From a virus, in the IMG/VR virus record IMGVR_UViG_3300047546_002686, positions 1-28,647 of that record: DNA of 28,647 nucleotides; one strand, 5' to 3'. The translations under genes and the position numbers were made by a program. The notes under the pieces are model-generated. The model saw only the letters and a list, made by a program, of their open reading frames with translations. It did not search any database and had not been told where the DNA came from. Each line of letters opens with the position of its first letter. Position 1 is the first letter of the stretch. This document shows, in pieces, positions 6,689 to 22,537 of this stretch.

Positions 6689-7272
6689 TCTGTAACCCCA
6701 TATAACCAACTTGACCAACCACCATTATAGTACGCATTAATGTTTTCTCTCCCAAATATTTCATTAACAGCTAAGTATACGCCATGATCGGGATTATCTG
6801 GATTGCTGTCATAATCATGACCTCCAATGAATCCTCCTATTTTAATTTTTGGTAACCAAGCTAGAATATCAGCTTTAACATTTTCATACTTATGAGATGC
6901 ATCTATAAAAACAAAGTCTATACTTCTATCAACAAATCTATTTGCTGCAGAAATACTATCATAAGGTATTGTAGTAATATAATTCATTATAGGCTTAATA
7001 TTTCTTAAATATTCTTGATATAGTGTCTTATTAACTACTGAGGGATGATACTCTAGAACAGGCTCTCCTGGAGAACCTTTAAATGTATCTACTGAGTAAA
7101 AATTAATATTTTTGTTTTTGTTAATTGACTCAACAACTGCATAACTAATAGATTTACCCTTCCAGACACCCACTTCTACAAATTTAGAATTATCTGGTAT
7201 TAAATCTAGAATATCGTTGTATAAATTCTCGTAGTTACAAAAACCTTGTATATTTTGATAAAAATGTTCCAT
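6685..7272 (-). CDS. Class I SAM-dependent methyltransferase (Methyltransf_24-like)
   Basis: A 195-aa protein with the SAM-binding motif KFVEVGVWKGKSISYAV (about 30-46), acidic motif NFYSVDTFKG, and the post-motif 'IDFVFIDASHKYENVKADI' typical of Methyltransf_24 proteins found in sugar and surface-polysaccharide clusters. The GGFIGGHDYD segment is also characteristic. Its ATG shares bases with the stop of the gene before it (TAATG) and its own stop overlaps the dehydratase start, so translation of the three is coupled. The acceptor is probably a sugar or glycan, by context only. Confidence 0.82.
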   Translation of the reverse strand: MEHFYQNIQGFCNYENLYNDILDLIPDNSKFVEVGVWKGKSISYAVVESINKNKNINFYSVDTFKGSPGEPVLEYHPSVVNKTLYQEYLRNIKPIMNYITTIPYDSISAANRFVDRSIDFVFIDASHKYENVKADILAWLPKIKIGGFIGGHDYDSNPDNPDHGVYLAVNEIFGRENINAYYNGGWSSWLYGVTE

Positions 7273-7883
7273 TATTCCGCAACAATAAATGCATTGCCAA
7301 AAGGATGAGTCTTTGTCCAGTTACCTTTAAGATGACCCATCTGATAATCAAAGAACTTAATCTTAAACCCAGCATCACCTAAAGCCTTTAACCAGAACTC
7401 TTCAGGTTCTCTGATAACATGAGTAATATCCATTTCGTATTGACGGATACGAAACTTCTTGTTGTCACCCAATGGTACAGCAACTAGAATGTTTCTACAA
7501 CGAATACGGAATGCTTTTAAGATACTTGGAAGTACATCATAAGGTACATGCTCAAGAACATCTTTTGCCATAATAAGATCATAGTTACCTTTGATATCAT
7601 CAACGCCATTAATAACACTGAGATATTCTTTTACCTCTGGCATTCCTGCTTTAACAGCATAATCAGAAATATCAACACCATAAGCGTCTTTACCAAGAAG
7701 TCTCATAGCATATACCATGAACCCCTTTGCACAACCAAAGTCTAGTACAGTTTCAAAGTTAATCTTCTCGATAATAGATGTTGCTTCACGAATTGTACGC
7801 TCAGGCATCCAGCGATAGTTTTCATAACCACTAATATGATTATTGATACCATCTTCATAATATTTTTCATCAAATAGATTCAT
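7272..7883 (-). CDS. Class I SAM-dependent methyltransferase
   Basis: A 203-aa protein: motif I VLDFGCAKGFMVYAM, motif II GVDISDYAV, motif IV 'YDLIMAKDVLEHVPYD', a C-terminal segment 'WLKALGDAGFKIKFFDYQMG'. These match the Methyltransf_11/23 group acting on small molecules or sugars. The N-terminal 'FDEKYYEDGINNHISGYENYRWM' pattern resembles methyltransferases in LPS clusters. It lies 11 bases downstream of the radical SAM gene. Confidence 0.82.
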   Translation of the reverse strand: MNLFDEKYYEDGINNHISGYENYRWMPERTIREATSIIEKINFETVLDFGCAKGFMVYAMRLLGKDAYGVDISDYAVKAGMPEVKEYLSVINGVDDIKGNYDLIMAKDVLEHVPYDVLPSILKAFRIRCRNILVAVPLGDNKKFRIRQYEMDITHVIREPEEFWLKALGDAGFKIKFFDYQMGHLKGNWTKTHPFGNAFIVAE

Positions 7884-7894
7884 AATAAAAATCC

Positions 7895-8983
7895 TTAAGC
7901 AAATTCGTTGTGTCTTGTTTCTGTTACGATGTCATCAATAAGTTCGTTTTGAAGAGCATACTTACAGAATGAGCAAGCATGATGTCTACGCTTTGTACTA
8001 ATATCACCATCAATTGAGTTATAGTAATCTAAGATACCATCAATGTCTGCAATCTTAAACTCAGCATTAACGTGGTAACCATTCTCAGGTGCAAGTTCTG
8101 CTGATGGGCAAACATAAACATTACCATCAGTAAACACGCAAGGCTTAACCATATGCATGTAGCAGTTATCGTTACGACGAGTACCTTTAAAGTTAAAGTC
8201 TGAAAGGAATGCAAACTTTAATGGACCATTCTCTGCTTCGAAGTTGTTAAGAATGCCACGAATCTTTTCAATGTCCTTAGCAGTTTCCTTTGGATCCTTG
8301 ATAGCATTAAATGCAATGCGGCAAGGTATCTTCTTCTCTTCTACCCACTTAAGCATACGAATAAAGTTTTCTTCCTTATAGGTATTCTTTGCAAGAATCT
8401 TCTTACCTGCAAGTTCGCTATTTGATTCTGTCCATTGTCCAGTAATGTTAGGATTGGTAGACGTCTCTAATGCACCATCCCACACATATGCAGCTGAGAT
8501 TTCAATGTTAGTAAGACCTTCAAACACAGAAAGATCATAATCATAGCCTTCATCAAATCCGTACATACCAAGACGTACCCATGATACCTTATCCCAGTTC
8601 TTAATCTTCTTTAGACGAGAACCGTTGGTAACAATACCAATCTTAATTCCTTTAGCATGAATGTAATCAATCATAAAGTTAAGATCAGGGTGAAGTGTAG
8701 GCTCACCACCACCTGTGAATTCCATACCAAGAACACCAAGTTCTGCAAACTGATCAACAGCTTTGATCATTTGTTCCTTAGTAAGCATTTCCTTCAAGTT
8801 GCGATTTGCAAAGCAGCAGAAAGAGCAAGTCAAGTTGCAAGGATTGCAAGGTGACATATGAAACATTACTGGCTTTGGTCGTCCCCCTTTTTGGATAATA
8901 GAAAGCCTATCCATATGCTTGAGAAGCTTAACATGATTACTTGTATAGCTTCTACCTTGAACTTTGGTTTCCATCTCGTGCAT
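7895..8983 (-). CDS. Radical SAM protein with SPASM-like C-terminal cysteines
   Basis: A 362-aa protein. CNLTCSFC (Cys49-x3-Cys53-x2-Cys56) is the 4Fe-4S radical SAM motif, followed by MEFTGGGEPTLHPDL (the GGEP motif) and IGIVTNGSRL. The C-terminal part has CYMHMVKPCVFTDGNVYVC and HHACSFCKYAL, giving extra cysteines as in SPASM/twitch domains that hold auxiliary clusters. Such enzymes modify peptides, sugars or cofactors by radical chemistry. The start at 8983 has AAGGGG six bases upstream, just after the preceding stop; the longer frame from 9037 would run into that gene. It sits among methyltransferases and sugar genes, so a sugar or surface substrate is plausible but unproven. Confidence 0.88.
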   Translation of the reverse strand: MHEMETKVQGRSYTSNHVKLLKHMDRLSIIQKGGRPKPVMFHMSPCNPCNLTCSFCCFANRNLKEMLTKEQMIKAVDQFAELGVLGMEFTGGGEPTLHPDLNFMIDYIHAKGIKIGIVTNGSRLKKIKNWDKVSWVRLGMYGFDEGYDYDLSVFEGLTNIEISAAYVWDGALETSTNPNITGQWTESNSELAGKKILAKNTYKEENFIRMLKWVEEKKIPCRIAFNAIKDPKETAKDIEKIRGILNNFEAENGPLKFAFLSDFNFKGTRRNDNCYMHMVKPCVFTDGNVYVCPSAELAPENGYHVNAEFKIADIDGILDYYNSIDGDISTKRRHHACSFCKYALQNELIDDIVTETRHNEFA

Positions 8984-8993
8984 GTTGTTCCCC

Positions 8994-9635
8994 TTAAACC
9001 TTTCCACCACGTCTGACAAACTCAGAAATGCTTCCATGAATAATATTATCTATGTTCTCTATTTCAAATGGTTTTTTATATTCTATATTTTTATGTGGTT
9101 CGTTGTTAATAAAAAACATCATATTCTTTTTCATGAAGTCTTTATTTTTACTTATTTCAATAATTTCTTCAACAGTATTTTGATCGTATGAAAAATTATA
9201 CGCATCGAATTTCTCAATCCAATAATCTCTATATTGTTCATTTACATGATGATATCCACCCTGTCCTGGTGTTGCACATGAAACAAAAACATAATTAGCT
9301 TTTTGGAACAAAGGCATGTAATTAGGCATATATTGTTCGTAGACGTGTTCTAAAAATTCTATTGAATATACAAGATCAAACTTCTCATCCAACTCCAATT
9401 GACCTTCATTAAAGTCATGATATTTTACATATGGTTTTTGACCAAGAGTGCTATCACCATCAACACCAATGCTGTAGATATCGATATAGTTTGCAAACTC
9501 AACCATACCACCAAGACCACAACCTATATCTAACATACTCTTGATATTATATTTGTTCTTAATGAAATCCAATTCATCTAAAAACATGGATGTAAAGTTA
9601 TAGTGTCCTCCAAGATGAGATGTATCTTTAGTCAT
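8994..9635 (-). CDS. Class I SAM-dependent methyltransferase
   Basis: A 213-aa protein with motif I SMLDIGCGLGGMVEFA (about 34-49), motif II SIGVDGD, and 'FDLVYSIEFLEHVYEQYMP' as in Methyltransf_23/31-like enzymes. The C-terminal part is lysine- and asparagine-rich ('KNKDFMKKNMMFFINNEPHK'). AGGA lies seven bases before ATG, and the start overlaps the end of the previous gene by eight bases. The substrate is unknown; the cluster context suggests a sugar or glycan. Confidence 0.8.
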   Translation of the reverse strand: MTKDTSHLGGHYNFTSMFLDELDFIKNKYNIKSMLDIGCGLGGMVEFANYIDIYSIGVDGDSTLGQKPYVKYHDFNEGQLELDEKFDLVYSIEFLEHVYEQYMPNYMPLFQKANYVFVSCATPGQGGYHHVNEQYRDYWIEKFDAYNFSYDQNTVEEIIEISKNKDFMKKNMMFFINNEPHKNIEYKKPFEIENIDNIIHGSISEFVRRGGKV

Positions 9636-10395
9636 TTGTAATCCTTTTCACTTCTTCGTAAACTGAGTAGTCTATTCCAAACAATGGCAAAACATATTCA
9701 TTATATTGTTTCATCATAAAGTCAGGATAAACATTTTGAAATATATGATGCATCTCTCTGTTAGCTTCATCTACCTTATAGTATGATGGAGTGTAACCTT
9801 TGAAAGAAGCTGGTGGATGGTAAACAGAACTGCTATGAACTACCATAGCCTTTTCTTTTAGAACTTTAGTGAGTATGACATCAAAACCATACCCACTCTT
9901 GAAATCGTGTAGATCCCATAGCTTCAATAAAGTAGGAATACATGAGGTGTGTACAAAGTTACACATACCCTCGATAAAACCAGTAATTGAATATTCTAGA
10001 TCTTCACGTTGATGAAGGATACCATGAGAACTTTCAGACCCTCTATATGTAGACAATTGAAAAAGCTTAACACGTTTATCATAAGCAGTCTTGATAGCTC
10101 TGTTAATATTATTAATATCAGTTATTAAATCATCATCGAAGAAACCAACATATTCATAGTCAGTCCAATCAAACTCTTGCAAGAATTTATAAGCTATTTG
10201 CCATTTAAAGCCTGTATTGTTCCAACTAATATAATCATACGTGTTTGGTTCAACATCTAGATTGTTATATCTGTAGAGAACAGTTTCATATAAACGCTCA
10301 GGCTTAGTGTACCTCCAATGGTTATCAGAATCATATGCTTCTGGATAAAACTCAATAGGTATACCAACAGCACTAAAGATTAAACTTTGTTTCAT
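9628..10395 (-). CDS. Probable glycosyltransferase with DDD motif
   Basis: A 255-aa protein. The sequence YEYVGFFDDDLITDI (81-95) carries an acidic triplet like the metal-binding DxD of GT-A glycosyltransferases and of the DUF707 family. 'SSVYHPPASFKGYTP' and the aromatic C-terminus fit a sugar-handling enzyme. Its start overlaps the upstream gene by ATGA. The assignment rests on the motif, the fold pattern and neighbours; the donor and acceptor are unknown. Confidence 0.65.
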   Translation of the reverse strand: MKQSLIFSAVGIPIEFYPEAYDSDNHWRYTKPERLYETVLYRYNNLDVEPNTYDYISWNNTGFKWQIAYKFLQEFDWTDYEYVGFFDDDLITDINNINRAIKTAYDKRVKLFQLSTYRGSESSHGILHQREDLEYSITGFIEGMCNFVHTSCIPTLLKLWDLHDFKSGYGFDVILTKVLKEKAMVVHSSSVYHPPASFKGYTPSYYKVDEANREMHHIFQNVYPDFMMKQYNEYVLPLFGIDYSVYEEVKRITND

Positions 10396-11216
10396 TTATA
10401 TTTTTCTTCTATAGCACGCTTCCATACAGGATTACGATTATATTGGTGAACAATAAAATAGTCAACACCTGTTGATGTTTTTGCTGTACCATCTACAAAA
10501 GTTGGATTGGGATCTATATTAACTTTACTGTAGTCTTTGTATGGATCTGCTACTGTACCAACTTGACAAGCCCAACCTGAATCATGGCCAATAAAATTAG
10601 TAATATCTATAAATGGTTTTGTAGAAAGTATTAAGTTATAAGCTGCTTGGTCTGACCCACCACCACCTGGAACTTGTTGTGGGAGACCTTCACACATCTT
10701 ACTAGCTAAAAAGTAAAGGTCAACCATATATTTAATTGGTCCAGCCATCACACCAGCATTGTATATTGATCTGTCTTCTACTCTATCATAACCATCATCA
10801 CCAAATGCCGTTCTTACATTATTGGCACCCCACATCTCATCTTTATATTTGATGTTTTCTGATGATGCAATAATATAATGTCCAGAACGATTTAAGAATT
10901 CAAAAGGATCTTTCTGAAAGATAACATCCATGACATCAGTTGCTAAAACAAAATTATATTTGTCTAATCTATCTTTTAGGATTGCATAGTAAACAAAAAA
11001 CCTTACAACACATACGTGCTCATGTTGTTCCAAATATCTTAAGGAAACAACTTCAAAATTATTTTGTTGAAACTTTTGTTCCAGTTCTTGATTATCACCA
11101 AATATGACAATTAACTTATCACCTTTATAACCAGATTGGTTCAACGAGTTAACCCACAGCTTACATTGATCCCAATTTAAATTTGATGTAATAGATCCAA
11201 TAACTAGATTATTCAT
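10392..11216 (-). CDS. GT-A-type glycosyltransferase-like protein
   Basis: A 274-aa protein. N-terminal MNNLVIGSITSNLNW and 'YNFVLATDVMDVIFQKDPF' (88-105) match nucleotide-diphospho-sugar transferases in which TDxxD binds metal and the donor. 'SIYNAGVMAGPIKYMVD' and 'PGGGGSDQAAYN' resemble the galactosyl/xylosyltransferase pattern 'FNAG... DQ..FN'. The start at 11216 forms ATGA with the preceding methyltransferase gene; the in-frame ATG four codons earlier is not needed. Confidence 0.72.
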   Translation of the reverse strand: MNNLVIGSITSNLNWDQCKLWVNSLNQSGYKGDKLIVIFGDNQELEQKFQQNNFEVVSLRYLEQHEHVCVVRFFVYYAILKDRLDKYNFVLATDVMDVIFQKDPFEFLNRSGHYIIASSENIKYKDEMWGANNVRTAFGDDGYDRVEDRSIYNAGVMAGPIKYMVDLYFLASKMCEGLPQQVPGGGGSDQAAYNLILSTKPFIDITNFIGHDSGWACQVGTVADPYKDYSKVNIDPNPTFVDGTAKTSTGVDYFIVHQYNRNPVWKRAIEEKYK

Positions 11217-11947
11217 AGTTGACCCCATGCCTTGAGATAGTCACTTTGTTGGAAGTTTGTAGTGTCAATGTGTTCAATCTTTTTAGCAGCAAATGCAATG
11301 TAGTGGGGGAACTGAGATGTTTGAAATTCTTGGCGATCACCTTTTCTAGGTTCTGAAACCTGATAAGCTTCAAACGACTCATCAGATGTTAACTCATAAA
11401 GATCTAAACTAATAGTTTCAAATCCAGCTTGTCTAGAAAATATTGTTCTGAAAAATTCTGGACTAAATTGATAAAACCCATGTCCAGCAAAATTATTACA
11501 TACAGTGAGGATAGCAATTACACCATCAACTCTTAGTATGTTTTTATAATTATCTATAACTGTCTTAACATCATAAATGTGTTCAATTGTACCAGCATCT
11601 AAAATATAATCAAAGCTGTTATGATACTTAGTATCGATTGGAAGATTTAAATCATGAACAATTGAGCAATTTTCGTAAGGTGAATAGTCAATAGTATCGA
11701 CAGTATCTGCACCCAACATTTTAAATAGCTTTTCAGTATGACCATCACCACCATCTACAGTCTGCTCTGCTGTAAATGTTATACCATGGTCAGATAAAAT
11801 TTTATTACTTATTTGAGCTTTTCTTCCTGATCTATCTGCCCAAGAACCAGCATAATGTAAACCCTGTCTACCAATTTGTAAGGTGTTACCTTTAACAAAT
11901 TGTTTGTGGCCTGCAATAAAATTAAGAACTGAAATATCTACGCCCAT
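11213..11947 (-). CDS. SAM-dependent methyltransferase-like protein
   Basis: A 244-aa protein resembling class I methyltransferases: 'KGNTLQIGRQGLHYAG' at the N-terminus, 'LGADTVDTIDYSPYENCSI' giving the acidic loop, 'FDYILDAGTIEHIYD' and 'VDGVIAILTVCNN'. Motif I is weak, so activity is less certain than for its neighbours. ATG at 11947 has GAGGA close upstream; a GTG one codon earlier is also possible. It is the first gene after the terminator at 11962-11989 and starts the coupled run down to 5654. Confidence 0.7.
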   Translation of the reverse strand: MGVDISVLNFIAGHKQFVKGNTLQIGRQGLHYAGSWADRSGRKAQISNKILSDHGITFTAEQTVDGGDGHTEKLFKMLGADTVDTIDYSPYENCSIVHDLNLPIDTKYHNSFDYILDAGTIEHIYDVKTVIDNYKNILRVDGVIAILTVCNNFAGHGFYQFSPEFFRTIFSRQAGFETISLDLYELTSDESFEAYQVSEPRKGDRQEFQTSQFPHYIAFAAKKIEHIDTTNFQQSDYLKAWGQL

Positions 11948-11961
11948 CACATCCTCATAAT

Positions 11962-11989
11962 AAAAAAAGGGGGTGCAGAAAGCACCCCC
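11962..11989 (-). terminator. Intrinsic terminator after the transporter gene
   Basis: On the minus strand GGGGGTGC-TTTCT-GCACCCCC is followed directly by seven Ts. The 8-bp GC-rich stem and U tract are a textbook Rho-independent terminator, placed 15 bases after the stop of the queuosine-precursor transporter gene. It separates the 12-17 kb operon from the glycan block downstream. Confidence 0.93.
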
Positions 11990-12004
11990 TGCCGGTATTA
12001 TTTA

Positions 12005-12583
12005 TTAGTCTTGTTGAACACGCTTTTGTAAGTAGTTCAAAAGAACACCATAAGTTGGAAGAATGATAGCAAGGCTTACAATGATCTTGAATACTACGTC
12101 AGCATTAGCAACTGCAAGCCAGTTAGCTGCCATGTACTCATTGCTACCATTATGGAAAGCAGTACCAAAGAACACATATGTGTCAACAATGTTAGAGATA
12201 ATGCTTGCAGCAAATGGAGCTGCCCACCATACAGTAAACTTTTCACGTATGCGTTGGAAGATTGTTACGTCAAACAATTGACCTACAAGATAGGCAAATG
12301 CAGAAGCGAAACCAATACGCCATTCAGAAATCAAACCACTAGCAATAACTGCAGGAATGAATGCTAATGCAACAACTGCTCGAGCTTGATGCTTATTAGT
12401 GAGACGTACTGTCAAGTCAGTAGCAACAAGAACGAGTGGGAATGTAAACATTGCCCATGCTGCTTTAATTCCAAAAATTTCTAATGGAAATTGAACAATG
12501 TAATTAGATAGTGCAATAATGAAAACATGGACAAGCATTAATTTCAATGCTAGATTTTTATTTACTTCTGAAAAATTAATCAT
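12005..12583 (-). CDS. yhhQ: Queuosine precursor (preQ0/7-deazaguanine) transporter, YhhQ/VUT family
   Basis: A 192-aa integral membrane protein with about six hydrophobic segments. The family pattern is clear: [21 protein letters not shown] (48-68), '[23 protein letters not shown]' (about 97-119) and '[11 protein letters not shown]'. YhhQ imports queuosine precursors across the inner membrane. Phages carry such genes either to restore tRNA queuosine or to make 7-deazaguanine DNA bases. Start overlaps the GMP reductase stop (ATGA). No preQ0 synthesis or DNA-transglycosylase gene is in this window. Confidence 0.9.
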
Positions 12584-13698
12584 ATAGTATTCCTTTCAAA
12601 TACATTATTATATTGCTGAGTTACTCTAACAAATGTTGTACACTTGCTGAGGTATTTCAACTTTGAGGCTCCTACGTAGGTGCACGCAGACCTCAAACCA
12701 CCTAAAATATCTCGTACTGTATCGGATGCTTTTCCTTTATACGGTACGAGTACCTCTCTTCCTTCTGAAGATCGGTAATCCTTAAGACCACCAAAGTGTT
12801 TGTCATTGGCAGCCTTAGAACTCATTCCATAGAACTTAACAAATTTCTTTTCTTCTGTAATTGGTTTGTAAGTATCCCAATCACGATCATACGACCATTC
12901 ACCGGTGCTTAAGTACTTAGTAACAATATCTCCACCACCTTCATCGTGACCAGCAAGCATACCACCAAGCATTACAAAGTCAGCACCAGCTGCAAATGCT
13001 TTAGCAACATCGCCAGGAGAAGTACAACCACCATCAGCAATGATATGCCCACCAAGTCCATGAGCAGCGTCTGCGCACTCGATAACCGCTGAGAGTTGCG
13101 GATAACCAACACCTGTTTTAATACGGGTAGTGCAAACAGAACCAGGACCAATGCCCACTTTAACGATATCAGCTCCAGCAAGGATCAGCTCCTCTGTTAT
13201 GTCACCTGTTACAACATTACCTGCAATGATTGTAAGTAAAGGATAATTATCACGAATATGTTTGACTACATCTATGAAACGTTCTGTATACCCGTTTGCA
13301 ACATCAACACAAACATACTTTAACTTACTACAGTGATTGTTAACAAACTGAAGCTTTTCTAAATCATCTTCACTGATACCAACACTCATTGCAGTATGAT
13401 CTTGTACTTCTTGATCAATTATAGAAGCATCATGAAAGAACTCAACTAGTTCTTCACCTGCATAATGTTTAACAAGACAAGTAAACATATTGAAGTTAGA
13501 TAACTCGACTGCCATACGACGAGTACCAACACCGTCCATGTTAGCAGCAATAATAGGAACTCCGCAATAGTTACGTTGACTATTGCGGAAAGTATATTCA
13601 CGTTCTAGTGATACTGTTTTTCTAGAAGTAAGTGTACTACGTTTAGGTCTTAACAGAACGTCTTTAAAGTCAAGTTTGATGTCGTTATCGATACGCAT
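12580..13698 (-). CDS. guaC: GMP reductase
   Basis: Converts GMP to IMP with NADPH. The 372-aa protein follows enterobacterial GuaC almost block for block: N-terminal '[15 protein letters not shown]', [12 protein letters not shown], FVCxDVANGY-type VCVDVANGY, and the catalytic loop [11 protein letters not shown] with Cys189 (E. coli Cys186), then '[19 protein letters not shown]' and '[11 protein letters not shown]'. It lacks the CBS pair of IMP dehydrogenase. About 25 residues longer than the E. coli enzyme. It is translationally coupled to the queuosine-precursor transporter, so purine pools and deazaguanine supply may be linked. Confidence 0.95.
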
Positions 13699-13716
13699 TG
13701 TTCTGCTTTATTCTCC

Positions 13717-14007
13717 TTAGAGTGACCAGCGAGTTTTATTTGTAATCTTATCACGCTTGATTGGTTTATCGTATATTTCTATAAATCCCATAATAACTCG
13801 AATTTGATTCTCAATTGCTCCTGACCAGTCACCCCAGTCATAAACAGAATCACCTTCTTTTGTACATTTACGAAGATAATCTAGAAAGTTATTAGTACAG
13901 GCGTCAGCATATTCCAGCTCGTCTGAACCATTACGTACAGATGCTCGGTGGTAGGCACGATATGCCAACCACAGACGTTTAATGTGAATTTCTAATTTGT
14001 TTTCCAT
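13717..14007 (-). CDS. Hypothetical protein, 96 aa
   Basis: A mostly helical small protein rich in Tyr and Trp ('IKRLWLAYRAYHRASVRNG', 'DSVYDWGDWSGAIENQIR'). Strong ribosome binding is not obvious before its ATG. It sits between the GT2 gene and guaC with short gaps, in the same direction. No family was recognised. Confidence 0.65.
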   Translation of the reverse strand: MENKLEIHIKRLWLAYRAYHRASVRNGSDELEYADACTNNFLDYLRKCTKEGDSVYDWGDWSGAIENQIRVIMGFIEIYDKPIKRDKITNKTRWSL

Positions 14008-14029
14008 TTAATTATATTAGCACAAAACA

Positions 14030-14743
14030 TTAATTAAGTCCAGTGCGATAAACATTTTCCACACGAATTTGTTCTAAAATATTTGGCATTTCTCTGTTGT
14101 ACACTTGATGTTCTCGTGACAAAATCTCACCAGAGTTGGCAATCGTTGAGGTCGTCACAGCATATGGTGTATGGTAGAAAGTATTTACAATTTGGTAGTT
14201 TCTATTAAGTTTGTAGTATAACGTATCGTATATGTAGTTGTCACCCCAGTATAAATCTAAACCATCAATAATTGGAATATATTCTGACTTGGGATAAAAC
14301 ATCAATGTACCCATGCCAAAATGTATTCTGGGATTGTATGGCATTGGACTATGAACAAGATCAATCTCACCAGATGTAATTGGAATATGACCAAACTCTT
14401 GTTGAAGCCCAGGACATATTCCACAAACACCAATACCAGGTTGTAAGAATTTATCCATTCTGCTGAATAATTTAAGATCTACAATTACATCATCATTAAG
14501 CAAACAAATGTTTTCATGCTTAGCAAGTCTTGTTCCTATATTCCAAGCTGGATTAACATATATGTTCTTTCCATATGAAATGCAATTAACTTTAGGATGA
14601 GAAAATATTGGATCGTTAGGCATAGCAGCTGAATCATTATCAATAATAATAATTTCACCAATAGAAGATACCTCTGTCATATCTTCAACAAACCTAATGA
14701 ATGGTTTGTATTTCCACATCGTAGGAACAACAACTGTAATCAT
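14030..14743 (-). CDS. Glycosyltransferase family 2-like protein
   Basis: A 237-aa GT-A protein: MITVVVPTMWKYKPF at the N-terminus, 'EIIIIDNDSAAMP' (DND 35-37) and the metal site CLLNDDVIVD (NDD 83-85) as in GT2 enzymes. GAGG lies five bases before ATG at 14743. A longer frame reaching 14818 runs into the tRNA-Ser gene and is not the real start. It probably adds a sugar to a glycan or lipid carrier; the donor is unknown. It lies in the operon with GalE- and TagD-like genes. Confidence 0.82.
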   Translation of the reverse strand: MITVVVPTMWKYKPFIRFVEDMTEVSSIGEIIIIDNDSAAMPNDPIFSHPKVNCISYGKNIYVNPAWNIGTRLAKHENICLLNDDVIVDLKLFSRMDKFLQPGIGVCGICPGLQQEFGHIPITSGEIDLVHSPMPYNPRIHFGMGTLMFYPKSEYIPIIDGLDLYWGDNYIYDTLYYKLNRNYQIVNTFYHTPYAVTTSTIANSGEILSREHQVYNREMPNILEQIRVENVYRTGLN

Positions 14744-14760
14744 AACTACCTCATAATTAA

Positions 14761-14850
14761 TGGCGGAGAGTGTGGGATTCGAACCCACGGAACCGGTTAA
14801 GGTTCGCTCATTTAGCAAACGAGTGCTTTAGGCCACTCAGCCAACTCTCC
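14761..14850 (-). tRNA. tRNA-Ser(GCU)
   Basis: A 90-nt class II tRNA. Acceptor GGAGAGT pairs with ACTCTCC, then G73 and CCA. The anticodon loop TTGCTAA gives GCU (AGC/AGU). A long variable arm (GAACCTTAACCGGTTC region) and T arm GTGGG-TTCGAAT-CCCAC are present. It lies inside the metabolic operon between the DUF3310 gene and the GT2 gene. It shows that long variable arms persist here where they are expected, unlike in the two Leu tRNAs. Confidence 0.95.
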
Positions 14851-14853
14851 TAA

Positions 14854-15249
14854 TTACTTAATACTCTTTTCGTATTCGCTTGCTATCTCTTCTTGCAAAT
14901 ACCACATAGCTTTATGAAGATCCTCTAAACGTTTCAATGGATCTTTCTTACCTGCACGAGAAACATATTTAATAACATTACCTAACGAGAAGCTGAGGTT
15001 CCATGCTCTAATAACCTTAATAGCCTCATAGGGATTATCTTTACCACCATAGTGTTCTGGATGGTTAACCATTTCTTTCCTACGACCAATTTCTCTTTGT
15101 ACAGGTTGTGAAATTGGAGTTTGTCTAGCAGGAGGAGTAGGTGTTACAACGGTAGCAGGTTCAAAACCAGAGTCTTTTGGTTCTTCAGACTTAGGAGGAC
15201 TAGCTTGTTGTATAACTGTTGAATTTGGATTTGTAAATTTCATAGCCAT
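14854..15249 (-). CDS. DUF3310 phage protein
   Basis: A 131-aa protein. Its C-terminal half is a standard DUF3310 domain: MVNHPEHYGG (60-69), 'EAIKVIRAWNLSFSLGNVIKYVSRAGKK' across about 74-101, and 'LEDLHKAMWYLQEEI'. The N-terminal half is a Pro/Thr/Gln-rich linker with no motif. DUF3310 is common in phages, often annotated as a nucleotide kinase-like protein, but its function is unsettled. ATG at 15249 has GTGAG eight bases upstream; a second in-frame ATG lies two codons on. Confidence 0.88.
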   Translation of the reverse strand: MAMKFTNPNSTVIQQASPPKSEEPKDSGFEPATVVTPTPPARQTPISQPVQREIGRRKEMVNHPEHYGGKDNPYEAIKVIRAWNLSFSLGNVIKYVSRAGKKDPLKRLEDLHKAMWYLQEEIASEYEKSIK

Positions 15250-15265
15250 AACAAAATCTCACTTA

Positions 15266-15793
15266 TCATAGAATATCTAAAAATTTATCTATACCCTTGT
15301 TTACATTTTCTTGCCAATGAATTGCTGAGTTCTCGTCTGCAAAGTCTGTCAAGTATTTGTAACATTGAAAAGGTTTATTCATTCTCTTACATATCTTTGC
15401 TATTGCATATGCTTCCATATCAACAGCATCTGTTACTAATTCTGGAATTTGTTTAACAAAATTATCACCAGTACTTAAAGTGAATAAACTATCACTAACA
15501 TATATTGGACCACCATCTTCTTCAAATGGTGTTACTCCAAGCTCCGCTAATGGTCTTGCATCCATATCTCTTTGATAAATTGTACCAACATTAATTAGCT
15601 GTCCAATAATATTTTTATTCAAAGCACCAGCTGTTCCATAATTTATTACTTTAGTACAAAAAGGATCTAGACATGCACCAATAGCATGAATTGTAGCATT
15701 GATCTTTCCTACACCAGTATAAATTACTGAGTATTGATTGGTGTCTAATTTTATTGGAAATTCATTCTCTAATGCTACCAGAATATAAATCAT
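15266..15793 (-). CDS. MTA/SAH nucleosidase-like protein (phosphorylase superfamily)
   Basis: A 175-aa protein, shorter than the usual 230 or so. It keeps the landmarks of the 5'-methylthioadenosine/S-adenosylhomocysteine nucleosidase fold: LENE (8-11, Glu11 aligning with E. coli Glu12), YTGVGKINATIHAI, NYGTAGALN, VDMEAYAIAKIC (Glu127 as the ribose binder) and YLTDFAD (Asp150 as the proton donor). It probably cleaves MTA or SAH to free adenine. With speD and several methyltransferases nearby, removal of MTA and SAH by-products is a reasonable role. Another purine nucleoside substrate is possible. Confidence 0.82.
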   Translation of the reverse strand: MIYILVALENEFPIKLDTNQYSVIYTGVGKINATIHAIGACLDPFCTKVINYGTAGALNKNIIGQLINVGTIYQRDMDARPLAELGVTPFEEDGGPIYVSDSLFTLSTGDNFVKQIPELVTDAVDMEAYAIAKICKRMNKPFQCYKYLTDFADENSAIHWQENVNKGIDKFLDIL

Positions 15794-16659
15794 CTCAGCT
15801 CAATCTTATAAGCACTCAAACACATATCTTCTAAAGTCTTTTCACATTTTATATAATCAGATATCAATCCATTAGGAACTGTAATTGATGGTACATCACC
15901 ATCACGTCTAGGTCCTTCAATTACTTTAAAGTCAATACCTGATACTTTCTTCATAGTATTTATTACTTGTCTTACAGAATAGTTGTTTCCAGTACCAATG
16001 CACTCATATGGTTTATTACTTGGCTTATCTACTGCTTTAACAATACCGTCTACTAGATCACTAACATGAACATAATCTCTTACGCATGTTCCATCTATTG
16101 TATCCCAATCTGTTCCGTTGATTGTAATGTGTGATCTTTTACCTGCAGCAGTCTGAGCAGCTATCCGAACAAGATGAGTAGCATTTCCAATCTGACCAAA
16201 CTCACCATTATTACCAGCTACGTTAAAGAATCTAAAAATTGTAAAGCTGCTTGCCATAGCTTTAACAAGACTTTCAGCCATTAGCTTAGATTGAGCATAT
16301 GGAGATACAGGATCAAATGCTGCAGCAGTAGAAGCAAAAATAAAATTATCACATCCATTAGTGCTATTGAAATGTAACTGCCAATGAGTAACTAATGTAT
16401 TGTTGTTAAAATACATGAATGGTTGTTTGACTGATTCTTCTACAGAAATATAACCTGCTAGATGTACAACAGAATCATATCTATATGCTTTAGTAAAATC
16501 ATTTGCATCACCATGCATATACATATCGAGATATTTTTGAACCTTATTCATTGAATAGGTTCTGTCTATACCATGAACAATATAACCAGCCTCTTTCAAA
16601 GCCTTGACTGTATGAGAACCTATGTACCCATTACAACCGGTTACGAGAATTTTTTTCAT
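15790..16659 (-). CDS. UDP-glucose 4-epimerase-like protein
   Basis: A 289-aa extended SDR. It has GCNGYIG (8-14) for NAD binding, 'VVHLAGYISVEESVKQP' (65-81), Ser110/Thr111 in FASTAAAF and Tyr121-x3-Lys125 in SPYAQSKLMAESL. 'GTCVRDYVHVSDLVDGIV' is a GalE hallmark, and 'YECIGTGNNYSVRQVI' follows. It interconverts a UDP-hexose, probably Glc/Gal. About 45 residues shorter than classic GalE. Start and stop overlap both neighbours by ATGA, so TagD-like protein, epimerase and nucleosidase are made as one coupled set. Confidence 0.85.
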   Translation of the reverse strand: MKKILVTGCNGYIGSHTVKALKEAGYIVHGIDRTYSMNKVQKYLDMYMHGDANDFTKAYRYDSVVHLAGYISVEESVKQPFMYFNNNTLVTHWQLHFNSTNGCDNFIFASTAAAFDPVSPYAQSKLMAESLVKAMASSFTIFRFFNVAGNNGEFGQIGNATHLVRIAAQTAAGKRSHITINGTDWDTIDGTCVRDYVHVSDLVDGIVKAVDKPSNKPYECIGTGNNYSVRQVINTMKKVSGIDFKVIEGPRRDGDVPSITVPNGLISDYIKCEKTLEDMCLSAYKIELR

Positions 16660-17432: not shown

Positions 17433-19832
17433 ATGTCTTTTTTACGTAAAATAGCATTAGCTTTTGTAGCAGCTATATCTACACTGTCTGTTGCTAAAGC
17501 AGATATTGCCGACGGGCATTTTAGTACTAATCAAATATTTGACGTTCAATATTATTGGAGTGGAACAACACTAAACGCATCTAGTTTTATTGCACCTTAT
17601 GATATGAACTTTACGCACCCAACTGTAGGTGCAGGACAATACTTTAAATTTTTTAACAGTACAACCAATCCAGGAACATATGGACTAGGTCTTTACAATA
17701 GCGATGGAACATTAGCTCAAACAGTACACAATACTGGTACATTACAAGCTATTGGTCCAGATGCATTATTCTATATTGGATCTGGATTTTTTGGTACTGT
17801 AATTACTACATCTGCTGGTTATAGTTATGGCCAGAGTGCAAGTTTTACTAACATGGATACTTCTGTATCAAGCACAGATACATCAAGCTATACATGGGCA
17901 AGCACTACACCTCTATCAGCTGGACAAACTGCAAGTTCAGGTTCTGGAAGTGGTTCAGGTTCTGGAAGTGGTTCAGGTAGTGGAACTACAATCACGGGTG
18001 CACCTTCTAACCTAAACTTTGGTACAGGTGATCATACTGATTGGACAGTTGGAGGTGGTACTGGAACACAAACTTCTACTTATTCAGGTACTGGTATTGG
18101 TACCGATGTTGTAGTAGAAATGCATGAGTTTAATGCAGGTGGTTCACATTCTTGGACTATCACACCACCTACTGGTGATTATATGGTTAGTATACAACCA
18201 ACAGGTCAATTGCAAAATGGTACTAATGATTTTCAAACAATGGCAACTGCATTAGGTCTAAGTGCAGCAAGTGTTACTGATATACAAAGTGCAATGACTG
18301 CAACTGGCAATGGTCTTCCTACCAATGCAGCATGGATCTATCAAGATATAGTATTATCTAACGGAACAACATTCAACGTAGCATGGCAATATGTTTCATC
18401 AGACTACGAACCATTTAACGATGGTAGCTTGACTTCACTTGTTAATAAAACTGGTACAACTGTTGCAACAGTTAATGGTGAAAATAAGGAATATGCTCTT
18501 CTTGGATTTACTAATGCAGGTACCGGTAACTATTCAGTTGGATCATATGGTGCTACTGGATGGCAGCTTGCAACATATCTTGTAAATGAAAATGGTACAT
18601 ACAGACTAGGTTTTGGTTCATTTAATCTTTCTGATACTGCTCTAAGTCCTATTCTTTTTGTAACTCAATATCAAGGTACTACTCTTGATCATGGTGTTGC
18701 ATTTGGTCCTATTGCTCCTAACCCAGGAAGTAATGCTCCTAATAATTCAGGAGGTGGTTCAGGTGGTGGTACTCCAACTATCGTAAGTACTGCACCGGGT
18801 GCTGATATTGTTACATCAACATCTACTGTTGGTGCAACAGTTGATCAAGATACAGTAAATTATACTGCTGCTACTTCTGGTGATACTAAGACTATCACAC
18901 AGACTACAATAACTGCACATACAACTCCTACAACTACTGTTACTGTTACAACACCAACTACTGTTGATACTTACAGTGATGGTTCAACTGTAACTACTAA
19001 CGGTACACCTGTAACAACTACAACAACTGTAAGTACTGTTACTTTTGATACTGCAAATGTAGAACAAACTGCATTTGTTGGTGGTGGAAACAATGCATAT
19101 AATAATGCAATTGTAAAACCATTCTTTGTTGATCCACTAAGTATTCCAGATGGATCTTGGGCAGACGTTTCATTGTCTTCTGGTAATAATATCGGAAGCA
19201 CAAATGTAAACTTTGGTTATCAAAAAACTGTTGAAAATGTTACTGCAGGTATTGCAGGATCTGCTGGTAAGGTTGCATCTAGCGGTCTTAATAATTCTTC
19301 AGTAACAGGTGATACATATGCTGCAACTGCTTATGTGTTAAACAAGTCTGATATTGTAGATGTAAAAGGTTCGATAGGTTTTGGTATTGGCAATTATGTT
19401 GTTAATAACTCAATTGCAAATTTTGGTCTATCAAACCAAACTAAGTCACAACAAAAGACTGCATATGCTGATCTTGCATTTTATTCTCCAGAAAAGTATG
19501 CAGGATGGACACCATTTGCTGGTGTAACTGTTCTTAACAGTGACATCGGTAATGTTGAGGAAACTGGTTCATCATTACTATCAAGTGGTACAGTAGCATC
19601 TAATAAGACATATACAATGCCTTATGTAGGTGTTAAAAATGAAGTATCACCTGGTGTAGTGGTTGAAGTAAAAGCAACTCAAACAGAACCATATGGTACT
19701 GTTGTGTCAGGTAAAGTAACTGCAAAGAATAAAATTTCAGATAATGTTTCACTAAACGTTTCATTGAGTGCTGACAAAGGTCAAAACTATGATAGTTTAG
19801 CAGTAATGTTAGGTCTTGTAGTTAACTTCTAA
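17433..19832 (+). CDS. Exported outer-membrane/autotransporter-like protein, 799 aa
   Basis: Signal peptide (MSFLRKIALAFVAAISTLSVAKA) is followed by a Gly/Ser/Asn/Thr-rich passenger-like region, a Gly-Ser tract at about 169-185, a beta-rich domain at about 195-435, a Gly-rich linker, a Thr-rich stretch (about 480-545) and a C-terminal region from about 570. The last 230 residues alternate polar and hydrophobic strands ('TAYADLAFYSPEKYAGWTPF', 'YTMPYVGVKNEVSPGVVVEV', 'VSLNVSLSADKGQ') and the chain ends LGLVVNF. A terminal Phe on an amphipathic strand is the signature of barrels inserted by the BAM complex. The closest concept is an autotransporter. GAGGG lies seven bases before ATG. Host surface change, adhesion or superinfection exclusion are guesses. 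Confidence 0.75.
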   Translation: MSFLRKIALAFVAAISTLSVAKADIADGHFSTNQIFDVQYYWSGTTLNASSFIAPYDMNFTHPTVGAGQYFKFFNSTTNPGTYGLGLYNSDGTLAQTVHNTGTLQAIGPDALFYIGSGFFGTVITTSAGYSYGQSASFTNMDTSVSSTDTSSYTWASTTPLSAGQTASSGSGSGSGSGSGSGSGTTITGAPSNLNFGTGDHTDWTVGGGTGTQTSTYSGTGIGTDVVVEMHEFNAGGSHSWTITPPTGDYMVSIQPTGQLQNGTNDFQTMATALGLSAASVTDIQSAMTATGNGLPTNAAWIYQDIVLSNGTTFNVAWQYVSSDYEPFNDGSLTSLVNKTGTTVATVNGENKEYALLGFTNAGTGNYSVGSYGATGWQLATYLVNENGTYRLGFGSFNLSDTALSPILFVTQYQGTTLDHGVAFGPIAPNPGSNAPNNSGGGSGGGTPTIVSTAPGADIVTSTSTVGATVDQDTVNYTAATSGDTKTITQTTITAHTTPTTTVTVTTPTTVDTYSDGSTVTTNGTPVTTTTTVSTVTFDTANVEQTAFVGGGNNAYNNAIVKPFFVDPLSIPDGSWADVSLSSGNNIGSTNVNFGYQKTVENVTAGIAGSAGKVASSGLNNSSVTGDTYAATAYVLNKSDIVDVKGSIGFGIGNYVVNNSIANFGLSNQTKSQQKTAYADLAFYSPEKYAGWTPFAGVTVLNSDIGNVEETGSSLLSSGTVASNKTYTMPYVGVKNEVSPGVVVEVKATQTEPYGTVVSGKVTAKNKISDNVSLNVSLSADKGQNYDSLAVMLGLVVNF
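17937..17987 (+). repeat. In-frame Gly-Ser coding repeat
   Basis: An 18-base unit (GGTTCTGGAAGTGGTTCA) is repeated about two and a half times and encodes the alternating Gly-Ser linker between the N-terminal part and the first beta domain of the outer-membrane-like protein. Unit-number change would keep the frame and alter only linker length. Confidence 0.8.
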
Positions 19833-19957: not shown

Positions 19958-20037
19958 TGGTGGAGTTATAGGGATTTGAACCCTACTGAATATCCGCATT
20001 GCAAGTGCGGCGACCACCCCAAGCAGTCCCTAACCCC
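19958..20037 (-). tRNA. tRNA-Ala(UGC)
   Basis: Acceptor GGGGTTA pairs with TAACTCC (one G-U), A73, CCA. Anticodon stem CCGCA/TGCGG with loop CTTGCAA gives UGC. The T arm is TAGGG-TTCAAAT-CCCTA. The variable region is eight bases, slightly long. The acceptor lacks the G3-U70 pair in the standard sense because the wobble is G3-U70 (G3 against T70), so the alanine identity element is in fact present. Its 5' eight bases overlap the end of the HNH gene. Confidence 0.92.
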
Positions 20038-20572
20038 ATTTTGCCTTTAAATAAGAATTAATTTTATCTTCAACCAAATACTTATACTTACTATGAACAT
20101 ATTGATGATGTGTTGGACATAGAGGTACTAAATTTTTAGGATCATTATCTGAATGTATTTCATTTAAATGATGTACTGCTACAATTCTATCTTCTCCGCA
20201 TGCAACACATTTCTTTTCATGGTGTCTCCATGCAACAGTAGTATATGAAGCAATCTCATCGTAATGATATTTTTCTGCTTTAGCTTTACCACCAATAGAG
20301 TTAGCACAACTTCTAGAGCAAAAGTAATATTTTTTCGAAGGAAATGTATTTGCTCTTTCTCTTACTGAATATAGTTTTTCGCATGCTTGACAATTGACAT
20401 TAAATATTTGATATTTGCCAAGTTTGTTATCTATTCTTTTATTAATTATTTCTATGTTTCGAGCATAACTATCGCGTTTTTTAGGATTTAGATCGCAATG
20501 ACGAGAATGATTTGCTTTTTCAGTAGCTCTAGTATAATCGAACCCTTTGTTGCAATGTTTACAATTCCACAT
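20030..20572 (-). CDS. HNH homing-type endonuclease with N-terminal zinc fingers
   Basis: A 180-aa protein. Zinc-binding pairs (MWNCKHCNKGF with NHSRHC; NCQACEKLY with FCSRSC) precede a C-terminal HNH domain, KCVACGEDRIVAVHHLNEIH then DNDPKNLVPLCPTHHQYVH. It should nick or cut DNA, probably as a free-standing homing endonuclease. ATG at 20572 has GGAGG eight bases upstream; the longer frame from 20587 would place this site inside coding sequence. Its stop codon TAG lies inside the 5' end of tRNA-Ala. The leader holds a 14-bp inverted repeat and a late promoter (separate entries). Confidence 0.9.
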   Translation of the reverse strand: MWNCKHCNKGFDYTRATEKANHSRHCDLNPKKRDSYARNIEIINKRIDNKLGKYQIFNVNCQACEKLYSVRERANTFPSKKYYFCSRSCANSIGGKAKAEKYHYDEIASYTTVAWRHHEKKCVACGEDRIVAVHHLNEIHSDNDPKNLVPLCPTHHQYVHSKYKYLVEDKINSYLKAKWG

Positions 20573-20627
20573 ATTTAATACCTCCATATGGAGTATTTAT
20601 ATATTGCAGACTTTTGCAACAAAGGGT
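20542..20627 (-). promoter_or_regulatory. Inverted repeat enclosing the HNH ribosome site
   Basis: ACCCTTTGTTGCAA at 20542-20555 and its exact complement TTGCAACAAAGGGT at 20614-20627 form a 14-bp perfect stem around 58 bases that contain the TATAAATA late promoter, GGAGG and ATG. A second small stem, CTCC/GGAG (20590-20593 with 20582-20585), covers the ribosome site itself. Only RNA started upstream could form either stem. Confidence 0.75.
20594..20601 (-). promoter_or_regulatory. T4-type late promoter TATAAATA for the HNH gene
   Basis: Exact TATAAATA on the minus strand, ending 22 bases before ATG at 20572. Initiation about six bases on (near 20588) would give a leader of about 16 bases that retains GGAGG but not the upstream arms of the two hairpins. 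Confidence 0.75.
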
Positions 20628-20638
20628 CTCTCCGATAA

Positions 20639-20712
20639 TGGAGCGGGTAACCAGACTCGAACTGGTTTCTACAGCTTGGAAGGCTGGGGCACAACCCATA
20701 TACCATACCCGC
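20639..20712 (-). tRNA. tRNA-Gly(UCC)
   Basis: Acceptor GCGGGTA pairs with TACCCGC; U73 and CCA, as expected for glycine. The anticodon loop CTTCCAA gives UCC (GGA/GGG). T arm ACCAG-TTCGAGT-CTGGT. It lies upstream of the HNH leader. The acceptor and 3' half are nearly identical to those of tRNA-Gly(GCC) at 22074, so the two probably arose by duplication. Confidence 0.93.
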
Positions 20713-22073: not shown

Positions 22074-22147
22074 TGGAGCGGGTAACCAGAATCGAACTGG
22101 TGAATTCTCCTTGGCAAGGAGACAGGTTACCTCTACATCATACCCGC
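22074..22147 (-). tRNA. tRNA-Gly(GCC)
   Basis: Acceptor GCGGGTA/TACCCGC, U73, CCA. Anticodon stem TCTCC/GGAGA with loop TTGCCAA gives GCC (GGC/GGU). T arm ACCAG-TTCGATT-CTGGT. Its first base is directly adjacent to the last base of the second HNH gene's stop codon. Confidence 0.95.
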
Positions 22148-22537
22148 TTAATGTTTAGGTAAACCCAAAGAACCTCTCCCTCTTCCCTTATTAGCAGCTC
22201 CCAAAAATTGTGTCTGACTATGACAATTAGGACAAATCAATCTAACATTAGAAGGTGAATTGTTACTAGGATCACCATTTACATGATCTACATGAAGTGT
22301 GATTGGTTTATTTTGCCATTCACTTACTCCACAAACTTCACATTTATACCCTCTATCTTCAGAAAGATATCTACGTAAAGTAATTCTTTCTATCCTATGA
22401 AGATTACCATTGTACCATTCATTTTTATGCAAGAGTGATTTGTGAGTACCTTGACAAACACTACTACAATATAATCCCCTTTTTTGACTAGGAGTAAATT
22501 TGAATTCTTTATTGCAATGTAAACAACTTGCTTTCAT
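22148..22537 (-). CDS. HNH endonuclease, 129 aa
   Basis: A compact HNH protein. N-terminal zinc pair ASCLHCNKEF/YCSSVC is followed by the HNH core CEVCGVSEWQ, LHVDHVNGDPSNNSPSNV and RLICPNCHSQT. Likely a free-standing homing endonuclease. ATG at 22537 has GGAGG eight bases upstream. The stop codon abuts the 5' end of tRNA-Gly(GCC), and the leader begins with the remnant of another tRNA, so the gene seems to have been placed in a tRNA cluster. Confidence 0.9.
   Translation of the reverse strand: MKASCLHCNKEFKFTPSQKRGLYCSSVCQGTHKSLLHKNEWYNGNLHRIERITLRRYLSEDRGYKCEVCGVSEWQNKPITLHVDHVNGDPSNNSPSNVRLICPNCHSQTQFLGAANKGRGRGSLGLPKH

What the first reader, a model, noticed from the sequence alone, without database searches (positions are those of the whole stretch)
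20542..20627. HNH gene with a 14-bp stem enclosing its RBS, bisected by a T4-type late promoter
An exact 14-bp inverted repeat (20542-20555 with 20614-20627) brackets TATAAATA, GGAGG and ATG of the HNH endonuclease. Early read-through RNA from the tRNAs upstream can fold it and hide the ribosome site; RNA started at the internal late promoter (about 20588) lacks the outer arm and also the CTCC half of a second small stem. This is the logic known for the T4 homing endonuclease I-TevI: transcribed early, translated late. The sequence shows the repeat and promoter; the regulation is inference.
Basis: partly seen in the sequence, partly recalled or inferred. Interest (0 to 1): 0.75.

Follow-up and report, generated by a model that had tools for sequence, protein, structure and literature searches.

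The report
tRNA-splitting homing cassette with late-only switch
A phage DNA-cutting gene keeps its start signal folded away in RNA made early and exposes it only in RNA made late; the gene travels together with a replacement tRNA gene, as a unit that in related phages sits exactly inside the anticodon of the tRNA it broke, and part of its folding leader appears to be the leftover of that tRNA.

Summary
The 14-bp inverted repeat is the only one of that length in the window, and a T4-type late promoter lies between its arms, upstream of the HNH gene's ribosome site.

In 15 distinct homologous leaders the conserved part is not the outer stem. It is a smaller hairpin in which TATAAATA-CTCC pairs with GGAG...AUG. 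CTCC follows TATAAATA in 12/15 HNH leaders, against 0/25 other late genes nearby and 0/22 in T4. The outer stem is a lineage-specific addition: four compensatory changes in L002, absent from several homologs. Read-through RNA is predicted to hide the start site and late RNA to expose it, as for T4 e and I-TevII. This is a known device (T4 segB, I-TevI, Aeh1 mobE).

Beyond the finding: the gene is part of a mobile cassette, leader + HNH + complete tRNA-Ala. In relatives it sits exactly inside the anticodon loop of a different, resident tRNA-Ala. The window's upstream arm lies where that broken tRNA's 5' half sits, so it is probably its decayed remnant. Endonuclease activity and regulation are untested.

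The parts
20030..20572 (-). HNH endonuclease gene, 180 aa (MWNCKHC...KWG*); stop codon ends 8 nt inside the tRNA-Ala gene
   Evidence: PHROG 1271 HNH endonuclease E=1.8e-12; stop inside or beyond the tRNA 5' end in 17/17 homologs with a called downstream tRNA-Ala
20614..20627 (-). 5' (upstream) arm of the outer 14-bp stem
20542..20555 (-). 3' (downstream) arm of the outer stem, within codons 6-11 of the HNH gene
20594..20601 (-). T4-type late promoter TATAAATA; also part of the 5' arm of the conserved inner hairpin
   Evidence: T4-type Gp23 in 5 of 12 contigs carrying homologs
20590..20593 (-). CTCC, pairs with the Shine-Dalgarno GGAG; follows TATAAATA only at this gene family
   Evidence: 12/15 HNH leaders vs 0/25 nearby late genes, 0/22 T4 late genes; only at this gene in five of six contigs that contain it
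20581..20585 (-). Shine-Dalgarno GGAGG
20588..20588 (-). predicted late transcription start (not mapped)
   Evidence: inference from T4 late-promoter spacing; folding
20616..20634 (-). probable decayed relic of a resident tRNA-Ala 5' half (D-arm end to anticodon TGC): CGGAGAGACCCTTTGTTGC
   Evidence: tRNA-Ala 5'-half profile peaks at this same register in 14/15 leaders; window alone p=0.076; clear halves in L004, L144, L146, L152, L153, L155, L156
19958..20037 (-). tRNA-Ala(TGC) carried by the cassette (unusual conserved D-arm)
   Evidence: 38 bits; compensatory changes in stems; linked to HNH
20639..20712 (-). tRNA-Gly(TCC), upstream co-directional gene supplying read-through RNA (inferred)

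Best explanation
This is a free-standing HNH homing cassette of a T4-type phage, made of a leader, the HNH gene and a complete replacement tRNA-Ala(TGC). It is inferred to invade phages by cutting their resident tRNA-Ala gene in the anticodon loop; the resident 5' half is left upstream and becomes part of the cassette's leader, while the cassette supplies a sequence-divergent tRNA-Ala. In RNA read through from the upstream tRNA genes, the late-promoter sequence TATAAATACTCC pairs with the ribosome site and start region, and in this lineage a 14-bp outer stem (its 5' arm probably the decayed tRNA anticodon arm, its 3' arm codons 6-11) clamps the whole structure. RNA started late at the internal promoter lacks both 5' arms, so the gene is translated late. 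Shown by sequence: repeat, promoter, inner-hairpin conservation, lineage covariation of the outer stem, cassette boundaries and empty sites in relatives. Inferred: transcription timing, translational silencing, endonuclease activity and target.
For: Hairpin: CTCC after TATAAATA in 12/15 HNH leaders vs 0/25 neighbours and 0/22 T4 genes. The three departures in CTCC (CTCT in L149 and L153, TTCC in L144) keep G-U pairs with GGAG. Read-through minus late opening cost exceeds 3 kcal/mol in 14/15 HNH genes; positive controls T4 e 13.6 and I-TevII 12.2. Two late genes of the window on the opposite strand give -1.0 and 0.7. Inner hairpin p<=0.01 against shuffles in 10 of 16 leaders. Outer stem z=-5.5 (window), -3.9 (L001), -4.7 (L002); L002 keeps 13/14 pairs through four double changes, L001 14/14 with two G-U. 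Cassette: L155 and L156 are 28% identical left of TTTGC, 93-97% from there through HNH to the tRNA-Ala end, then 26%. Joining L156 flanks at TTTGC|AA gives a perfect tRNA-Ala(TGC) cloverleaf. L152 shares both flanks with empty L216/L246, left homology ending at TTTG of the anticodon loop. Upstream 5' halves are tRNA-Ala above shuffles in L004, L144, L146, L152, L153, L155 and L156.
Against: No transcript 5' ends, no translation assay, no cleavage assay. The outer stem is missing or weak in many homologs. With a stricter measure (SD only, upstream shuffled) the window's own leader is not unusual (0.44 of shuffles reach it). The tRNA relic in the window is weak by itself (p=0.076); its identity rests on register shared with homologs. 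L148 carries the HNH next to an ordinary tRNA-Ala with no upstream half; L209 and L211 carry the unusual tRNA-Ala without this HNH. gp55, gp33 and gp45 were not sought and the window is a fragment.
Confidence: 0.72

Rival explanations
1. The outer inverted repeat is a DNA operator bound by the HNH protein (autorepression, as I-TevI does over its late promoter), not an RNA stem.
For: I-TevI, and probably I-TevII/III, have operators resembling the homing site over their promoters (PMC2988022); a TTGC...TGCRA pair just upstream of the promoter recurs in most leaders.
Against: Sequence changes between window, L001 and L002 keep RNA pairing through G-U pairs and compensatory changes, which a DNA site would not need. 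Arms are 58 nt apart and one is in coding sequence. The TTGC...TGCRA pair could still be an operator in addition.
Confidence: 0.15
2. The outer stem is a neutral by-product: the tRNA relic contains TTGCAA and the conserved codons TGY AAY contain its complement, so some pairing is built in and has no role.
For: Complementarity between the TTTGC relic and conserved Cys-Asn codons is partly automatic; many homologs lack a strong outer stem; it adds only about 1-3.4 kcal/mol to start-site opening.
Against: The 14-bp pairing extends beyond TTGCAA and is maintained by four compensatory changes in L002; own-arm pairings rank first for window, L002 and L138 in a swap matrix.
Confidence: 0.25
3. The insert in tRNA-Ala is an intron (group I type) that is spliced out, with HNH as its intron endonuclease.
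For: Position in the anticodon loop is typical of tRNA group I introns (general knowledge); joined flanks form a perfect tRNA.
Against: The insert contains a complete second tRNA-Ala; no Rfam intron match in window, L155, L156, L152, L001 or L002; the resident halves decay in most copies.
Confidence: 0.03
4. The HNH simply sits next to tRNA-Ala by chance recombination in a tRNA cluster; upstream halves are unrelated tRNA debris.
For: tRNA clusters can hold tRNA debris; L209/L211 have the same tRNA-Ala without HNH.
Against: Upstream halves are Ala(TGC) among 20 isotypes and all end in the anticodon loop, in several different resident alleles; precise empty sites.
Confidence: 0.05

Closest known systems
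T4 segB (GIY-YIG homing endonuclease in the T4 tRNA cluster)
   Same: Free-standing homing endonuclease inside a phage tRNA cluster, late promoter within an RBS hairpin (PMC2988022); cuts within tRNA genes (PMC13096335)
   Different: SegB is GIY-YIG, not HNH, with cleavage motif RAWTSGAAC; no report found here of a broken tRNA half serving as its leader or of an anticodon-loop border with a carried replacement tRNA
I-TevI / I-TevII / I-TevIII leaders of T4
   Same: Early/middle read-through RNA hides the RBS; late promoter inside the hairpin frees it (PMC2988022, PMC3014915); I-TevII behaves alike in the same computation
   Different: Those genes lie in group I introns; here free-standing, with a second lineage-specific outer stem reaching into the coding region
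Aeromonas phage Aeh1 mobE
   Same: HNH homing endonuclease with an RNA hairpin over its RBS (described in PMC2988022 and PMC3014915)
   Different: Inserted in nrdA, not in a tRNA; sequence relation not tested
Intronless homing with resistant neighbour allele (SegF/gene 56, SegG/gene 32)
   Same: Endonuclease travels with a version of the neighbouring target gene (general knowledge, not tested here)
   Different: Here the travelling partner is a whole tRNA, the HNH stop codon lies inside it, and the left border is a clean break in the resident tRNA anticodon loop

Membership tests
T4-type late-promoter/RBS-hairpin genes (e, soc, 49, I-TevI, segB, mobE) | RBS paired in upstream-initiated RNA | tested here: met
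   Predicted folds
T4-type late-promoter/RBS-hairpin genes (e, soc, 49, I-TevI, segB, mobE) | T4-type late promoter inside the structure so that late RNA lacks the 5' strand | tested here: met
   TATAAATA 20601-20594 between the arms; conserved in 15 homologous leaders
T4-type late-promoter/RBS-hairpin genes (e, soc, 49, I-TevI, segB, mobE) | Mapped late 5' end and reduced early translation | not testable with these tools
   No transcript or reporter data
Free-standing HNH homing endonuclease | HNH nuclease protein family | tested here: met
   PHROG 1271 E=1.8e-12; Pfam HNH models match below curated cut-off
Free-standing HNH homing endonuclease | Occupied and empty sites in related phages | tested here: met
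   L152 vs L216/L246 and other empty loci; L155 vs L156
Free-standing HNH homing endonuclease | Site-specific DNA cleavage and preferential inheritance | not testable with these tools
   Needs enzyme assay and phage crosses
Group I intron-encoded endonuclease | Group I intron RNA around the ORF | tested here: not met
   No Rfam intron hit; insert contains a whole tRNA
SegB-type | GIY-YIG nuclease | tested here: not met
   Protein matches HNH families and no GIY-YIG family

The most novel reading that the evidence does not exclude
A natural cleave-and-replace element: an HNH endonuclease that destroys the resident tRNA-Ala gene at its anticodon and carries its own recoded, cut-resistant tRNA-Ala fused to the end of its reading frame, while the wreck of the destroyed tRNA is reused as the RNA switch that delays the endonuclease to late infection.
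Probability: 0.4. Interest if true: 0.8.

Novelty: new variant of a known kind. Interest (0 to 1): 0.6.

Why it matters
The late-only switch extends a textbook T4 device to an uncultivated family and shows that it is rebuilt with different stems in different lineages. The cassette offers a directly testable case of a homing element that targets a tRNA anticodon loop and brings a replacement tRNA, a natural counterpart of cleave-and-rescue drives, and gives a concrete mechanism by which phage tRNA clusters turn over.

Tried and rejected
Direct alignment of the window's upstream region with its own downstream tRNA-Ala gave nothing, because the carried tRNA differs from the resident half; comparison with 906 tRNAs and a profile was needed. 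Joining upstream halves to the 3' half of the carried tRNA failed for most loci for the same reason. A group I intron was considered and rejected. The idea that CTCC is merely part of the late promoter was rejected by controls. A search of bacterial genomes found no relatives and GenBank phages only distant ones. An early impression that Rfam rejects the carried tRNA-Ala was a filter effect: it scores 38 bits when searched alone. The SD-only shuffle test was uninformative for the window. ARAGORN gave no tRNA from joined L155 flanks; only L156 gave the perfect re-joined tRNA.

Full report
OBSERVATION. The exact 14-bp inverted repeat at 20542-20555/20614-20627 is present. It is the only perfect one of that length with arms within 100 nt in the window; none appears in 20 shuffles. 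The HNH gene runs on the minus strand; its start is ATG 20572, since homologs conserve MWxCKHC and not the in-frame ATG at 20587. TATAAATA (20601-20594), CTCC (20593-20590) and GGAGG (20585-20581) lie between the arms. All four exact TATAAATA in the window lie 24-38 nt before an ATG with a ribosome site (the HNH one is listed under its copy L017), and five of twelve contigs carrying homologs encode a T4-type Gp23 capsid protein, so a T4-type late promoter is a fair reading. The late start at about 20588 is inferred.

HOMOLOGS. Two IMG/VR scans gave about 25 loci with full-length relatives, 43-88% identical to the query. Sixteen non-identical leaders with a late promoter, the window's included, were compared. 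GenBank phages hold only distant relatives.

THE CONSERVED SWITCH IS THE INNER HAIRPIN. In the HNH leaders TATAAATA is followed by CTCC and, after a short loop, by GGAG. CTCC follows TATAAATA in 12 of 15 HNH leaders with an exact TATAAATA but in none of 25 other late genes in the same loci and in none of 22 T4 late genes. TATAAATACTCC is found only at this gene in five of the six contigs that contain it. The three departures (CTCT twice, TTCC once) keep pairing through G-U. In many homologs the promoter octamer itself pairs with the spacer around AUG, giving hairpins of -11 to -15 kcal/mol. Against dinucleotide shuffles p is 0.01 or less in 10 of 16; the window's hairpin is weaker (-9.5, p=0.033). 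The leaders are related, so these counts are not independent events.

EARLY VERSUS LATE RNA. Opening SD..AUG costs more in read-through than in late RNA by over 3 kcal/mol in 14 of 15 HNH genes (mean 5.6; window 7.0). The known cases T4 e and I-TevII give 13.6 and 12.2, while most T4 structural late genes give under 3. Two late genes of the window that face the other way, and so are not read through from these tRNAs, give -1.0 and 0.7. In the window, opening a 30S footprint costs 18.2 kcal/mol in read-through RNA, 14.8 without the outer arm, 10.8 from the promoter onward and 4.8 in late RNA. One weaker measure, SD alone with the upstream shuffled, is not significant for the window.

THE OUTER STEM. 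It is strong in the window, L001 and L002 (z -5.5, -3.9, -4.7), moderate in L138, L149 and L155/L156, and absent in L005, L140, L151 and L153. Between the window and L002 it keeps 13 of 14 pairs through four compensatory double changes and one G-U; L001 keeps 14 with two G-U. So it looks like selected RNA structure in this lineage, but it is not a family feature. Leaders with a weak inner hairpin tend to have the outer one; this is a trend, not a test.

WHERE THE UPSTREAM ARM COMES FROM. Upstream of many homologs lies a 5' half of a tRNA. Compared with 906 tRNAs, the best isotype is Ala(TGC), above all shuffles, in L004, L144, L146, L152, L153, L155 and L156, always ending in the anticodon loop. 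A profile of tRNA-Ala 5' halves peaks in 14 of 15 leaders at the same register, its TGC 14-15 nt before TATAAATA; in the window this is CGGAGAGACCCTTTGTTGC, overlapping the outer arm. For the window alone the score is weak (p=0.076), so the relic reading rests on shared register.

THE MOBILE UNIT. L155 and L156 are unrelated to the left of TTTGC (28% identity), 93-97% identical from there through HNH to the end of the tRNA-Ala, and unrelated after it (26%). Joining the L156 flanks at TTTGC|AA gives a complete tRNA-Ala(TGC) with all stems paired. L152 has the order Met-[Ala 5' half]-HNH-Ala-Thr-Pro-Asn, while empty relatives L216 and L246 have Met-Ala-Thr-Pro-Asn; homology ends at TTTG in the anticodon loop and resumes in the spacer before tRNA-Thr. 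The carried tRNA-Ala differs from resident ones. Its unusual 5' half occurs in 7 contigs of 2.9 million, five of them with this HNH. It is a real tRNA by covariation and score. In 17 of 17 homologs with a called tRNA-Ala downstream on the same strand, the HNH stop codon lies inside or beyond the tRNA. A distant relative, L161, has a tRNA-Pro(TGG) 5' half upstream instead.

MECHANISM. Shown: the repeat, promoter, hairpin conservation, lineage covariation, cassette borders and empty sites in relatives. Inferred: the HNH protein cuts resident tRNA-Ala in the anticodon loop; repair copies in the cassette with its divergent, perhaps resistant tRNA-Ala; read-through RNA from the tRNA cluster is silent; late RNA is translated.

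COMPARISON. T4 segB, I-TevI/II/III and Aeh1 mobE use the same promoter-in-hairpin device (PMC2988022, PMC3014915), so the regulatory finding is a new member of a known kind. SegB also cuts in tRNA genes (PMC13096335). No paper found describes an HNH cassette bordered by a tRNA anticodon loop with a carried tRNA; the library is partial, and the original segB and mobE papers were not held.

Noticed in passing
window 22148-22537 (-) and 22074-22147 (-): A second small HNH gene whose stop codon abuts the tRNA-Gly(GCC) gene directly: possibly another HNH-plus-tRNA pair.
   Followed up: no
window 20030-20037: The HNH stop codon lies inside tRNA-Ala, as in all 17 homologs with a called downstream tRNA-Ala; RNase P cutting of the tRNA 5' end would leave HNH mRNA without a stop codon.
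   Followed up: partly
L077 6110 onward: 27 matches of TATAAATACTCC...GGAG at about 72-nt spacing in one IMG/VR contig.
   Followed up: no
L158 1783-1814: Late promoter in the loop of a 10-bp stem (ACCTCCGAAA/TTTCGGAGGT) that contains the SD of another gene; other strong cases at L016 and L186: the device recurs in these tRNA-rich regions with unrelated sequences.
   Followed up: partly
L157, L147, L161 leaders: HNH relatives without an exact late promoter have other stems around the SD (10 bp ACGGATTACT/AGTAATCCGT in L157), so start-site pairing may persist without the promoter.
   Followed up: partly
L161 upstream of 3001; L162 2890-3634: Distant HNH relatives linked to tRNA-Pro(TGG): a 5' half ending at the anticodon loop in L161, and two complete tRNA-Pro genes around the HNH in L162.
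   Followed up: partly
window 17433-19832 (+): 799-aa secreted, repeat-rich protein on the strand opposite to the tRNAs, with the look of an outer-membrane autotransporter; unusual for a phage.
   Followed up: no
window 5654-16659 (-): Cluster of sugar-nucleotide epimerase, dehydrogenase, glycosyl transferase and radical SAM genes.
   Followed up: no
L156 1641-1715: tRNA-like gene with a four-base anticodon call (gaac) in ARAGORN that also scores as tRNA in Rfam.
   Followed up: no
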